Source of the DNA: an uncultured Desulfobulbaceae bacterium
Lineage (GTDB): Bacteria > Desulfobacterota > Desulfobulbia > Desulfobulbales > BM004
Assembly (NCBI GenBank): GCA_947258675.1
Contig: CAMYJP010000078.1
Location: 1-8,728, forward strand
Direction: 5' to 3'
DNA: 8,728 nt
In this document: positions 4,844 to 8,238 of the stretch, in pieces
Numbering within the stretch: the first letter of the stretch is position 1
Layout of the letters: the number at the start of each line of letters is the position of its first letter
Program-made: the position numbers and the translations under genes
Notes under the pieces: model-generated
Database searches by the model: none
Seen by the model: the letters and a program-made list of their open reading frames with translations, nothing else
Told to the model about the DNA's origin: nothing

Positions 4844-5332
4844 ATGATGAAGCAAAAGAAATCGCGAGAACATAAGAGTAAGCCCGAAGATATAGGAAGT
4901 CTTCTTAAAAAAATGTTGGGTACCAGGAAATGGCAATCGCGTATAGAACAACATGCGGTTTTCACTTTCTGGGACGATGCGGTTGGCACAGATATCAGTG
5001 CTCGGGCGCAACCCTCTTACATCAGCGGTGGGGTTTTGTGGCTGCAGGTCACGGATTCAGTGTGGATGCAACAGCTTCATTTGCAGAAAATTTTATTGCT
5101 GGATATTATAAATGCAAAACTCGGCAGCTCAATGATCACGGATATTCGATTTCATCTGAATACTACTCTTCCAGAGAAAAAAGGTGCCAAAACGGATAGA
5201 CGTATATCCAGGCCGGTTCATAAAGAGAAAATGGAAGAGTTTAAGAAAACGCTAGTTGGTATAAAAGATGAGGATATCAAGGCGTCTTTATTGAGTCTGT
5301 GGATTAAATCGCAAACTTCAATTGACACATAA
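4844..5332 (+). CDS. dciA: DUF721 / DciA-like protein (putative replicative helicase loader)
   Basis: DciA proteins carry DUF721 and load the DnaB replicative helicase in bacteria that lack DnaC/DnaI-type loaders. The 162-residue product has a basic N-terminus (KQKKSREHKSK). The DUF721 domain spans about residues 15-106: IGSLLKKML, then FWDDAVG (W43, G48), then GGVLWLQVTDSVWMQQL (W74), then LLDIINAKLG and ITDIRF. These match the family's conserved tryptophans, VG turn and strand pattern. A charged linker (110-130) and a short C-terminal helical segment follow. An in-frame stop at 4835 leaves ATG 4844 or 4847 as the first possible start; no Shine-Dalgarno is visible. The fusion gene follows after 42 bases, so co-transcription is likely, though no functional link is known to me. 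Helicase loading is inferred from family membership. Confidence 0.75.
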   Translation: MMKQKKSREHKSKPEDIGSLLKKMLGTRKWQSRIEQHAVFTFWDDAVGTDISARAQPSYISGGVLWLQVTDSVWMQQLHLQKILLLDIINAKLGSSMITDIRFHLNTTLPEKKGAKTDRRISRPVHKEKMEEFKKTLVGIKDEDIKASLLSLWIKSQTSIDT

Positions 5333-5374: not shown

Positions 5375-7705
5375 GTGAAAAAAACGCTCATGGTACATCA
5401 CAACATTCTTGAAAAGATCGGGCACACTCCATTAGTCAGAGTCAATCATTTTGTGTTGCCTGAAAAAGTCAGTATTTATGCAAAACTGGAATCCTACAAC
5501 CCGGGTGGATCGGTTAAAGATCGTATTGCTTTGTCCATGATTGAGGCTGGCGAAAAGAGCGGTGTATTAACTCCTGATAAAATAGTTCTGGAGGCAACAA
5601 GCGGTAATACCGGTATTGGCCTTGCCATGGTTTGTGCAGTAAAAGGATATCGGTGTCAGCTGGTTATGCCTGAGTCTGCAAGTATTGAACGACGGAAAAT
5701 AATGGAGGCCTTTGGCGTAGAAATTCTTCTTACCCCGGCCAAGAAAAGTACGGATGGGGCAATTGAGCAGGCTTATGCAATGGCCAGGGAGCATCCGAAT
5801 CGGTATTTTCTTACCGATCAATTTAATAACGAAGCAAACTGGCAGGCACATTATGATAAAACAGGTCCTGAGATATGGGAGCAAAGCAATGGTAACGTGA
5901 CAGATGTTGTCGCTACGCTTGGGACTACAGGCACGGCAATGGGGCTTTCAAAATATTTTGCCGATCATCACCCGCAGGTAAGGGTGACGGCGATGGAACC
6001 CTTTTATGATCACAAAATACAGGGTTTAAAAAATATGAAAGAATCCTATAAGCCCGGTATTTTTGATAAATCGCTTCCCTACCAGATAATACACATTGCC
6101 GATGATAAGGCCTTTAAAATGTCGAGGCTTCTGGCCCGTAAGGAGGGGCTGTTTGTAGGCATGAGTTCGGGTGCTGCAATGTCTGCTGCTTTGCAGCGGG
6201 CTGAAGAATTGAAAGAAGGCTGTATTATCGTTATCTTGCCTGATGGTGGGGAGAAATATCTGAGCACTCCTTTGTTTACAAGGAAAAAACCTTCTCTTCC
6301 TAAAGCATCAGAACTGCGTTTTTATAATACGCTTAGCAAGAAAAAAGAGGTCTTTATCCCTCTTTCTGACAAAAGAGTTACTTTTTACGCCTGCGGACCT
6401 ACAGCCCACGAGCATGCGAACCTCTCCCACTGTCGCCGGTTTATTGTTGCTGATTTGATTAACCGTCTTCTTGGCAATAAAGGGTATGTAGTACAATCCT
6501 ATATGAATTTTACAGACCTTGATGATAATACAATTCTTGGAGCCCAGAAAAACGGTGAAGAGCTTCAAGAATATACAGAATCATATATAAGTGAATTCAA
6601 GTCTGATATTGAAGCGTTAGGAGTAAAAAAACCATCAGGATATCCGCGGGCTTCAGAACATGTTGAAGGGATGATAGATATAGCAGGCCGTTTGATGGAC
6701 AAAGGGTTTGCCTATGAAAAGCACGGCTCGATCTATTTTGATATTTCCAAGTTCAATAAGTATGGAAAGTTATCAGGGGTTGATTTAAGCAAAATCCAGG
6801 TAGGTAAAACAGTTGATCTGGATAATTATGAAAAAGACAATCCAAAGGATTTCACTCTTTTGAAACGATCAACACTGGCAGAATTGAAAAATGGTATTTT
6901 CTATAAAACCAAATGGGGTAATGTGCGGCCCGGTTGGCATATAGAATGTGCTGCAATGTCTATCCATTATCTTGGGGAAACAATGGATATACATACCAGC
7001 GGGCGTGATCTTATTTTTCCGCACCATGAGAATGAAATCGCTATAGCCGAGGCCTTGACAGGAAAACCATTGGCCCGTTATTGGCTGCACAGTGAACTGC
7101 TCCTGGTTGATGGGAAAAAAATGTCTGCTGAAGCAAATACGCTTATCACTTTCAGGGACCTGCTCGCAAAAGGCTACACCCCGCGGGAAATACGTTTTCT
7201 GCTCTTATCCACTCATTACCGGAAACCGCTTAATTTTTCCTATAAGAAACTTGATGAAACAAGAAAGATTTTGAAAAGGCTGGATGAGTTCACCTGTAAA
7301 CTTCTCTGCCTGCCTCCTGGCTTGCCGCACCCGCAGGTTGCCTCCTACCTCTCTGACATGGAAGAGCGGTTTTTCAGTGCCATGGATAATGATTTAAATA
7401 TGTCGCGGGCCATAGGAGCTGTTTTTGATTTTATTAAAAAGACTAACCCTATACTTGCCGAAGGCCAGCTTGACAAGGAACAGAAAAAGTATATTCTCGA
7501 AACACTCAGAAAGATAGATGGTCTGCTTAATGTGCTGAAGGTGGAGGAATGTCCACTTGCCCCGGAAATAGATCGACTCATACAAGAACGTGAGGAAGCG
7601 AGAAGGCAGAAGGATTGGAAAAAGGCGGATGATGTCCGTGATGAACTGATAAAACAAGGGTTTAGGGTTGTTGATACTGCTAAAGGTCCAGTCTGGAGTA
7701 TGTAA
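5375..7705 (+). CDS. cysS: Fusion of cysteine synthase (PLP) and a divergent cysteinyl-tRNA synthetase-like protein
   Basis: Residues about 8-302 are a fold-type II PLP enzyme of the CysK/CysM group, which makes cysteine from O-acetylserine (or O-phosphoserine) and sulfide. PLP lysine K48 is in NPGGSVKDR, the substrate loop TSGNTG is at 75-80, the phosphate loop GTTGT at 183-187, then GMSSGAAM and LPDGGEKYLST. Residues about 315-776 match CysRS in length and order. Zinc/cysteine ligands C340, C525, H550 and E554 are kept with near-E. coli spacing, as are NFTDLDD, FPHHENE and a C-terminal REEARRQKDWKKADDVRDEL segment. The class I signatures are altered: HIGH reads NLSH (349-352) and KMSKS reads KMSAE (582-586). 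tRNA charging is therefore uncertain. The reading frame is uninterrupted, so this is not decay by frameshift. GTG 5375 is the listed start. ATG 5390, preceded by AGGTGA at 5373, is a good alternative and loses only five residues. Confidence 0.88.
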   Translation: MKKTLMVHHNILEKIGHTPLVRVNHFVLPEKVSIYAKLESYNPGGSVKDRIALSMIEAGEKSGVLTPDKIVLEATSGNTGIGLAMVCAVKGYRCQLVMPESASIERRKIMEAFGVEILLTPAKKSTDGAIEQAYAMAREHPNRYFLTDQFNNEANWQAHYDKTGPEIWEQSNGNVTDVVATLGTTGTAMGLSKYFADHHPQVRVTAMEPFYDHKIQGLKNMKESYKPGIFDKSLPYQIIHIADDKAFKMSRLLARKEGLFVGMSSGAAMSAALQRAEELKEGCIIVILPDGGEKYLSTPLFTRKKPSLPKASELRFYNTLSKKKEVFIPLSDKRVTFYACGPTAHEHANLSHCRRFIVADLINRLLGNKGYVVQSYMNFTDLDDNTILGAQKNGEELQEYTESYISEFKSDIEALGVKKPSGYPRASEHVEGMIDIAGRLMDKGFAYEKHGSIYFDISKFNKYGKLSGVDLSKIQVGKTVDLDNYEKDNPKDFTLLKRSTLAELKNGIFYKTKWGNVRPGWHIECAAMSIHYLGETMDIHTSGRDLIFPHHENEIAIAEALTGKPLARYWLHSELLLVDGKKMSAEANTLITFRDLLAKGYTPREIRFLLLSTHYRKPLNFSYKKLDETRKILKRLDEFTCKLLCLPPGLPHPQVASYLSDMEERFFSAMDNDLNMSRAIGAVFDFIKKTNPILAEGQLDKEQKKYILETLRKIDGLLNVLKVEECPLAPEIDRLIQEREEARRQKDWKKADDVRDELIKQGFRVVDTAKGPVWSM

Positions 7706-8161: not shown

Positions 8162-8238
<77 letters not shown>

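What the first reader, a model, noticed from the sequence alone, without database searches (positions are those of the whole stretch)
5375..7705. Cysteine synthase fused to a CysRS-like domain with altered HIGH and KMSKS but an intact zinc/cysteine pocket
One uninterrupted 776-residue frame joins a cysteine-making PLP domain with conserved key loops (K48, TSGNTG, GTTGT) to a full-length CysRS-like domain. Zinc ligands C340, C525, H550 and E554, which select cysteine in known CysRS, are kept at the expected spacing. The adenylation motifs are changed: N349 replaces the first His of HIGH, S351 its Gly, and A585/E586 replace the KS of KMSKS. Possible readings are: (a) a divergent but active CysRS fed directly with cysteine; (b) a cysteine-activating enzyme with a non-tRNA acceptor, by analogy to MshC, the CysRS paralogue of mycothiol synthesis; (c) a cysteine sensor or channelling partner. 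I have a vague memory of similar divergent CysRS-like proteins in sulfate reducers, so the fusion may be a small existing family whose activity is untested.
Basis: partly seen in the sequence, partly recalled or inferred. Interest (0 to 1): 0.82.

Follow-up and report, generated by a model that had tools for sequence, protein, structure and literature searches.

The report
Cysteine synthase with pseudo-tRNA-synthetase domain
Many sulfate-reducing bacteria and their relatives carry a cysteine-making enzyme fused to a cysteinyl-tRNA synthetase that has lost its ATP-using motifs but kept its tRNA-reading part, which suggests that cysteine synthesis may be controlled directly by the cysteine tRNA.

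Summary
In detail: one 771-776-residue frame joins a cysteine synthase to a full-length CysRS-like domain with broken HIGH and KMSKS motifs. It is not decay or error. In 191 aligned fusions (190 distinct genes), intact HxGH occurs once, KMS[KR]S in 27, both together never; related pairs show purifying selection. A separate CysRS is present in 39 of 39 distant and 26 of 28 near fusion genomes examined. The zinc set is whole in 81 of 81 near relatives but in only 55 of the 110 distant ones. What never fails is the tRNA end: counterparts of the E. coli CysRS residues that touch anticodon base G34 are kept, conservatively, in 191 of 191. In 17 of 39 distant genomes the fusion is the only cysteine synthase found and no serine acetyltransferase is found. 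Best reading: an active cysteine synthase, in many hosts not fed by O-acetylserine, carrying a pseudo-synthetase that binds tRNA-Cys (and, where zinc remains, cysteine) and regulates it. tRNA binding is inferred; regulation is a hypothesis. My ten literature searches turned up no description of it.

The parts
5390..7705 (+). CysK-(pseudo)CysRS fusion gene, likely ATG start (GTG 5375 also possible), 771-776 aa
5408..6277 (+). Cysteine synthase (PALP/CysKM) domain, residues 12-301
5516..5518 (+). PLP lysine K48, kept in 191 of 191 fusions
6023..6046 (+). GLKNMKES loop (217-224); K219, N220, E223 invariant in 191; stand-alone CysK of 18 host genomes show KIQGIGAGF[VI]P in 16
6278..6310 (+). Linker between the two domains (302-312), partly low confidence in the model
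6311..7696 (+). CysRS-like domain, residues 313-774
6392..6394 (+). C340 = E. coli zinc ligand C28 (kept in 164 of 191)
6419..6430 (+). HIGH site, here NLSH (349-352); HxGH in 1 of 191 fusions
6434..6439 (+). R354-R355, invariant in 191 of 191; the second Arg is Ser in 25 of 25 canonical CysRS of host genomes
6947..6949 (+). C525 = E. coli zinc ligand C209 (kept in 174 of 191)
6995..7003 (+). TSG (541-543) in place of the conserved GGG; GG at 541-542 in 0 of 191
7022..7036 (+). H550 (191 of 191) to E554 (142 of 191) = E. coli zinc ligands H234 and E238
7118..7132 (+). KMSKS site, here KMSAE (582-586); KMS[KR]S in 27 of 191
7556..7702 (+). CysS_C anticodon-binding domain (728-776)
   Evidence: PF23493
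7589..7630 (+). R739, R743, W748, D752 = E. coli R423, R427, W432, D436 (contacts of anticodon base G34); kept conservatively in 191 of 191

Best explanation
The gene encodes a working PLP cysteine synthase whose C-terminal domain is a pseudo-synthetase descended from CysRS. It no longer activates cysteine with ATP, because the HIGH, KMSKS and adenosine-loop signatures are gone, but still recognises tRNA-Cys by its anticodon domain. In lineages that keep the zinc site, the window's among them, it may also bind cysteine. The most likely job is control: binding of (probably uncharged) tRNA-Cys, and of cysteine where zinc is kept, changes the activity of the attached cysteine synthase, so that synthesis follows the charging state. 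This would work like HisZ on HisG, but covalently and with a tRNA ligand. About half of the sampled fusion genomes have no detectable CysE, so there the substrate is probably not O-acetylserine; O-phosphoserine is the best guess, and the fused domain could stand in for the feedback that normally acts on CysE. Shown: fusion, motif losses, retained anticodon residues, purifying selection, separate CysRS in relatives, no CysE and no stand-alone CysK found in many hosts. Inferred: loss of adenylation, tRNA-Cys binding, active cysteine synthase. Hypothesis: regulation, and the O-phosphoserine substrate.
For: 191 fusion rows (L067 and L142 are one gene, so 190 distinct): HxGH 1, KMS[KR]S 27, both 0. 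GG at 541-542: 0. PLP Lys 191. G34-contact set R739, R/K743, aromatic 748, D752: 191 of 191 (strict R-R-W-D 151), including the 17 that lack both zinc cysteines; contacts from PMC12684709, passages; numbering by alignment. Positions at least 95% invariant in 55 canonical CysRS and still kept in 95% or more of the fusions: first Rossmann half 5 of 25, CP-like part 17 of 35, second Rossmann half 11 of 31, KMSKS segment 3 of 16, DALR 1 of 4, anticodon domain 6 of 9 (mean retention 0.89). Within-group identity falls in the HIGH half (0.49 against 0.69 for canonical) but hardly in the anticodon domain (0.46 against 0.50). A second CysRS match in 39 of 39 distant fusion genomes, two of them partial. 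dN/dS 0.024-0.298 for the CysRS-like part in 21 disjoint pairs. In 17 of 39 genomes the fusion is the only cysKM match (E 1e-60) and none of the 17 has a cysE match; of the other 22, 21 have one. Over 297 genomes, no cysE match in 61 of 117 with the fusion and 38 of 180 without. SepCysS over cut-off: 0 of 22. CysRS*-like paralogues in three of these genomes are the mirror image: KMSKS kept, no CysS_C (3 of 3).
Against: No binding, activity or regulation has been measured. Anticodon-domain residues may be kept for structure. One of three very divergent fusions scanned gives no Pfam CysS_C match at E 1e-3 (L249), and W748 is F or Y in 40 of 191. Some lineages keep KMSRS with HLGx, so weak ATP use is not excluded there. 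In the window's own clade the zinc set is whole in 81 of 81, which favours cysteine binding as much as tRNA binding, and 18 of 18 host genomes there have CysE and a stand-alone CysK, so the CysE-free argument does not apply to near relatives. CysE was judged by matches below the TIGR01172 cut-off in every genome; NF041874 reaches its cut-off in 180 of the 198 positives. Completeness of the genomes is not told and related genomes are not independent, so the Fisher p (4e-8) overstates the link with cysE absence. A stand-alone CysK relative with the GLKN motif occurs in one genome that does have cysE (G035), so the motif alone does not show O-phosphoserine use. The model's domain arrangement is uncertain (pTM 0.58) and its GLKN loop (218-221) is below pLDDT 50.
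Confidence: 0.45

Rival explanations
1. Cysteine-only sensor: the degenerate CysRS fold binds cysteine at the zinc site and gives feedback inhibition, as HisZ does with histidine; the anticodon domain is kept only for structure.
For: Full zinc set in 136 of 191 and in 81 of 81 near relatives; W521 189, H550 191 and T380 152 of 191; HisZ precedent (PMC9437257, passages).
Against: Zinc set incomplete in 55 of 191, both zinc cysteines lost in 17, while the anticodon contacts remain. HisZ lacks an anticodon domain (recalled).
Confidence: 0.2
2. Scaffold or channel: the domain holds tRNA-Cys near the place where cysteine is made so that the housekeeping CysRS can charge it at once.
For: tRNA-reading residues kept; separate CysRS in the same genomes.
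Against: A CysRS contact was not tested; the gene neighbours compared are shared only within sub-clades.
Confidence: 0.15
3. Active but divergent enzyme: it still activates cysteine and either charges tRNA-Cys or hands cysteine to another acceptor (MshC-like).
For: KMS[KR]S in 27 of 191 and first His in 60 of 191; zinc site intact in the window.
Against: HxGH and KMS[KR]S never occur together (0 of 191); GGG loop lost; MshC profile far below cut-off; separate CysRS present in relatives.
Confidence: 0.1
4. tRNA-dependent cysteine synthesis: the PLP domain changes an amino acid (e.g. phosphoseryl) already attached to tRNA-Cys, like SepCysS.
For: A PLP sulfhydrylase joined to a tRNA-Cys reader in genomes without a CysE match.
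Against: TSGNTG/SSGNTG loop kept in 191 of 191; recalled: it binds a free alpha-carboxylate, which aminoacyl-tRNA lacks. The 39 distant hosts have a CysRS; no SepCysS over cut-off in 22; SepRS was not searched.
Confidence: 0.05
5. Persulfide synthase of the CARS/CPERS kind, using PLP.
For: CysRS homologues make cysteine persulfide (PMC10655014, passages); many hosts live in sulfide (general knowledge).
Against: The KIIK and KMSK lysines named there as needed are all four present in 0 of 191, both KIIK lysines in 6, both KMSK lysines in 3.
Confidence: 0.03

Closest known systems
HisZ-HisG (HisRS paralogue regulating histidine synthesis)
   Same: A synthetase paralogue without adenylation activity regulates an enzyme of its own amino acid's synthesis (PMC9437257, passages).
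   Different: Separate subunits, class II, senses free histidine, no anticodon domain (recalled). Here: class I, covalent, attached to a cysteine synthase, anticodon domain kept.
CysRS (cysteine--tRNA ligase, TIGR00435; E. coli 1li5, 1u0b)
   Different: HIGH, KMSKS and GGG loop lost, fused to CysK, accompanied in relatives by a canonical CysRS.
MshC (mycothiol synthesis)
   Different: Below profile cut-off (206.9 against 485.1); MshC is ATP-dependent, and its profile match ends at residue 710, before the anticodon domain kept here.
CysRS* of Desulfobacterales
   Same: Extra CysRS paralogue in the same phylum (PMC9437257, passages).
   Different: CysRS* lacks the anticodon domain and charges SelC*; the fusion is the reverse.
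CysK/CysM, including O-phosphoserine-dependent CysM (3dki)
   Different: Invariant GLKN loop unlike that of the host's stand-alone CysK, and the C-terminal pseudo-synthetase.
GCN2 (recalled, not tested)
   Same: Pseudo-synthetase that senses uncharged tRNA and drives an enzyme domain.
   Different: Eukaryotic protein kinase with a HisRS-like domain.

Membership tests
CysRS (cysteine--tRNA ligase) | TIGR00435 score over 340 bits | tested here: met
   413.3 bits
CysRS (cysteine--tRNA ligase) | HIGH motif | tested here: not met
   NLSH in the window; HxGH in 1 of 191
CysRS (cysteine--tRNA ligase) | KMSKS motif | tested here: not met
   KMSAE in the window; KMS[KR]S in 27 of 191, never with HxGH
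CysRS (cysteine--tRNA ligase) | Zinc ligands C-C-H-E | tested here: met
   Met in the window, in 81 of 81 near relatives and 136 of 191; not met in 55 of 191
CysRS (cysteine--tRNA ligase) | Anticodon domain with G34-contact residues | tested here: met
   191 of 191, conservative set
CysRS (cysteine--tRNA ligase) | Charges tRNA-Cys | not testable with these tools
   Needs an assay
Cysteine synthase (CysK/CysM) | TIGR01136 subfamily score over 344.15 bits | tested here: met
   355.4 bits; below the cut-offs of TIGR01138 cysM (342.9 of 394.2) and TIGR01139 cysK (316.5 of 350.95)
Cysteine synthase (CysK/CysM) | PLP lysine and [TS]SGNTG loop | tested here: met
   191 of 191 each
O-phosphoserine sulfhydrylase | Basic residue that binds the phosphate (Arg220 in M. 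tuberculosis CysM, recalled) | tested here: inconclusive
   K219 invariant in 191; its equivalence to Arg220 is recalled, not aligned here; the motif also occurs in one genome with cysE
MshC | TIGR03447 score over 485.1 bits | tested here: not met
   206.9 bits
CysRS* (SelC*-charging) | No anticodon-binding domain | tested here: not met
   CysS_C present in the window; no match in the three CysRS*-like genes scanned
CARS persulfide synthase (CPERS) | KIIK and KMSK lysines | tested here: not met
   All four in 0 of 191
SepCysS pathway | SepCysS gene in the host | tested here: not met
   Over cut-off in 0 of 22 relatives' genomes; SepRS not searched; the window's own genome is not held

The most novel reading that the evidence does not exclude
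A bacterial amino-acid biosynthetic enzyme gated directly by its own tRNA: tRNA-Cys binding to a covalently attached pseudo-synthetase switches cysteine synthesis on or off, and in many hosts replaces CysE feedback in a CysE-free (probably O-phosphoserine) cysteine pathway spread through the Desulfopila phylum.
Probability: 0.3. Interest if true: 0.93.

Novelty: new variant of a known kind. Interest (0 to 1): 0.8.

Why it matters
Databases call these proteins cysteine--tRNA ligase or cysteine synthase depending on lineage, so annotation and pathway models of sulfate reducers can be misled. The 2022 review of duplicated synthetases lists two CysRS paralogue functions, CysRS* and MshC (PMC9437257, passages); this would be a third. 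It offers a testable case of direct tRNA control of amino-acid synthesis, and of cysteine synthesis without serine acetyltransferase. It may also bear on the unfilled phosphoserine phosphatase gap in Desulfovibrio vulgaris (PMC5764234, passages), a loose link.

Tried and rejected
Decay or sequencing error: rejected (clade-wide pattern, purifying selection). Sole CysRS of the cell: rejected for relatives; of 28 near genomes G024 showed only the fusion and G006 only a weak partial match besides it (31.6 bits), both of untold completeness. CPERS: rejected on the lysines. Gene context: the DciA/DUF721 gene lies just upstream in part of the clade, and other sub-clades have their own upstream genes, which I did not identify; nothing pointed to a function. 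Out-of-phylum search: plasmid records gave one record with one place over 80% query cover, Acetoanaerobium noterae, in two pieces in an unannotated stretch of a 2.6 Mb record; not followed. Distribution outside the phylum of Desulfopila is therefore not really tested. The D. vulgaris fitness paper (10.3389/fmicb.2023.1095191) has no occurrence of cysteine, cysK or DVU0663 in its main text; PMC10133479 lists Dde_3080 as cysteine synthase without more (passages). Literature searches showed no paper on the fusion in their listings; not all were aimed at it, and the library lacks most subscription papers.

Rows dropped: of 117 fusion genomes I fetched 110. G042, G094, G141 and G106 (partial matches) and G245, G156, G255 (full-length, left out for the limit of regions per call) are not in the 191. 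In some searches five loci were left out of the canonical set: L107, L108, L110 (fusions), L106 (split gene), L105 (a different CysRS type). The 30 further canonical genes were picked by a pattern that demands HxGH and KMS[KR]S; none of the 30 loci failed it. Rows without a regex match were recovered by coordinates. The 18, 28 and 39 genomes were chosen by me, not drawn at random.

Full report

A family, not an oddity. The scan of genome contigs gave 340 relatives, of which the best 80 were kept; their records are titled Desulfobulbaceae, Desulfocapsa, Desulfurivibrio, Desulfobacterales and kin, or only Deltaproteobacteria, Proteobacteria or Pseudomonadota. I call these 80 and the window the near set. 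A sample of 297 genomes from the phylum of Desulfopila aestuarii contained 117 with the fusion, read by me from the table (best match at E 1e-132 or better; 113 full or nearly full length, 4 partial) and counted. A second protein search from a distant member found it in Desulfovibrionales such as Megalodesulfovibrio gigas and Solidesulfovibrio magneticus, where NCBI names it cysteine synthase; in near relatives NCBI names it cysteine--tRNA ligase. Only the best 120 proteins are listed in each of those two searches.

What was lost and kept. I aligned 191 fusions: the window, 80 loci and 110 of the 117 (L067 and L142 are the same gene). HxGH is whole in 1, KMS[KR]S in 27, both in 0; the first zinc cysteine is kept in 164, the second in 174, the full zinc set in 136. 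In the near set of 81, HxGH and KMS[KR]S are whole in 0 and the zinc set in 81, so zinc loss belongs to distant lineages. Invariant in 191 of 191 are, among others, the PLP lysine K48, P342, R354, R355, D381, H550, R739, D752, R755 and D767. COCOMAPS 2.0 (PMC12684709, passages) names Arg423, Arg427, Trp432 and Asp436 as CysRS contacts of G34 in the tRNA-Cys complex; their counterparts R739, R743, W748, D752 are kept as R, R/K, W/F/Y, D in 191 of 191 and strictly in 151. The anticodon GCA is a major identity element of tRNA-Cys (PMC9976931, passages). The 17 members without either zinc cysteine keep the contacts too. Against 55 canonical CysRS of the same phylum, the fusions keep in 95% or more of rows 5 of 25 canonical-invariant positions in the HIGH half, 17 of 35 in the CP-like part, 11 of 31 in the second Rossmann half, 3 of 16 in the KMSKS segment, 1 of 4 in DALR and 6 of 9 in the anticodon domain. 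My reading: constraint left the ATP site throughout, the cysteine site in some lineages, and the tRNA-reading residues in none.

Still under selection. In 21 disjoint pairs of close relatives dN/dS (Nei-Gojobori) was 0.024-0.298 for the CysRS-like part and 0.017-0.243 for the CysK part. The window itself is not in those pairs. Several dS values are near 1, so the higher ratios are rough.

Host genomes. The 28 near genomes examined hold the fusion by choice. 26 also hold a CysRS distinct from it (in G021 in two pieces on two contigs, in G023 of the HIGN/KMAKS type), G006 only a weak partial match and G024 none. In 39 distant fusion genomes a second CysRS match is present in 39, in two of them partial; loci of 30 were read, and all 30 fit HxGH plus KMS[KR]S. 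In 18 of 18 near genomes a stand-alone CysK and a CysE match are also present, side by side in 12. But in 17 of the 39 distant genomes the fusion is the only cysKM match, and none of these 17 has a CysE match; 21 of the other 22 do. No CysE match reaches the TIGR01172 cut-off; with NF041874, 180 of 198 positive genomes reach its cut-off. Four of the 17 have the fusion on a contig of about genome size (G242, G128, G066, G093; lengths). SepCysS is not over cut-off in any of 22 genomes tested. Over the 297 genomes no CysE match is seen in 61 of 117 with and 38 of 180 without the fusion. On a quick tree of the CysK domain (119 rows) the fewest changes were 7 for the zinc set, 9 for KMSKS and 22 for CysE presence, the last perhaps inflated by incomplete genomes.

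Substrate. Stand-alone CysK of 18 near hosts carry KIQGIGAGF[VI]P in 16 (two did not match the pattern); the fusion carries GLKN[ML]KES-type sequence with K219, N220 and E223 invariant. From memory, this resembles the loop with Arg220 in the O-phosphoserine-dependent CysM of M. tuberculosis; I could not align the two here. One genome with CysE (G035) has a stand-alone relative with GLKNL, so the motif is a hint only. The lack of CysE in many hosts is the stronger argument, and it does not hold for the near set.

Mechanism. A CysRS relative that keeps the anticodon reader but loses ATP chemistry is most simply a tRNA-Cys binder. Attached to the enzyme that makes cysteine, and standing where CysE feedback is often missing, regulation by tRNA-Cys is the best single reading (0.45). 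A cysteine-only sensor, a charging scaffold, residual activation, on-tRNA chemistry and persulfide synthesis are rivals in that order. The mirror-image CysRS*-like genes in G301, G304 and G324 (KMSKS kept, no CysS_C match) show that in this phylum CysRS paralogues can lose the anticodon domain.

Novelty. Ten full-text searches (listings seen) and the review PMC9437257 (passages) show no account of the fusion; PMC3431258 (passage) mentions DVU0663 only as cysK. The kind, a synthetase paralogue controlling its amino acid's synthesis, is known from HisZ; the covalent class I, tRNA-reading form is new as far as these searches go.

Noticed in passing
L299 832-2094, L300 789-2060, L301 858-2285: Third, shorter CysRS-like genes with HxGN and KMSKS and no CysS_C match in genomes G301, G304, G324; they look like the CysRS* described for Desulfobacterales. 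SelC*/SelB* neighbours were not checked.
   Followed up: partly
L105 and L298: In Desulfofustis sp. PB-SRB1 (G023) and in G189 the other CysRS found is of a HIGN/KMAKS type, unlike the HIGH/KMSKS one of relatives.
   Followed up: partly
L281 3586-4674, L282 3649-4641: Stand-alone CysK relatives (54% identical to the fusion's CysK domain); L281 has a GLKNL loop, L282 did not match the pattern. In L281 the gene lies beside a protein that by eye resembles a methionine aminopeptidase. Possible unfused ancestor type.
   Followed up: partly
window 4844-5332: DciA/DUF721 gene directly upstream of the fusion; the same order occurs in part of the near set.
   Followed up: partly
window 8162-8238: tRNA-Arg (TCT) downstream of the fusion.
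   Followed up: no
window residues 485-515 (6827-6919): A fusion-specific nearly invariant stretch (Y485, R498, L504, K505, G507) with a short insertion before the GWHIEC motif; possible new contact surface.
   Followed up: no
fusion residue C353 (6431-6433): A new cysteine right after the HIGH site, in 128 of 191 fusions and in 81 of 81 of the near set, Ala or Gly in 25 canonical CysRS.
   Followed up: no
L302 (Acetoanaerobium noterae record): CysK-like and CysRS-like matches lie close together in two pieces in a Firmicute; not tested whether they are separate genes or have intact motifs.
   Followed up: no
DVU0663 of Desulfovibrio vulgaris Hildenborough: Called cysK and up in biofilm in PMC3431258 (passage). 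Whether it is a fusion of this family was not tested; it would be a ready laboratory model if so.
   Followed up: no
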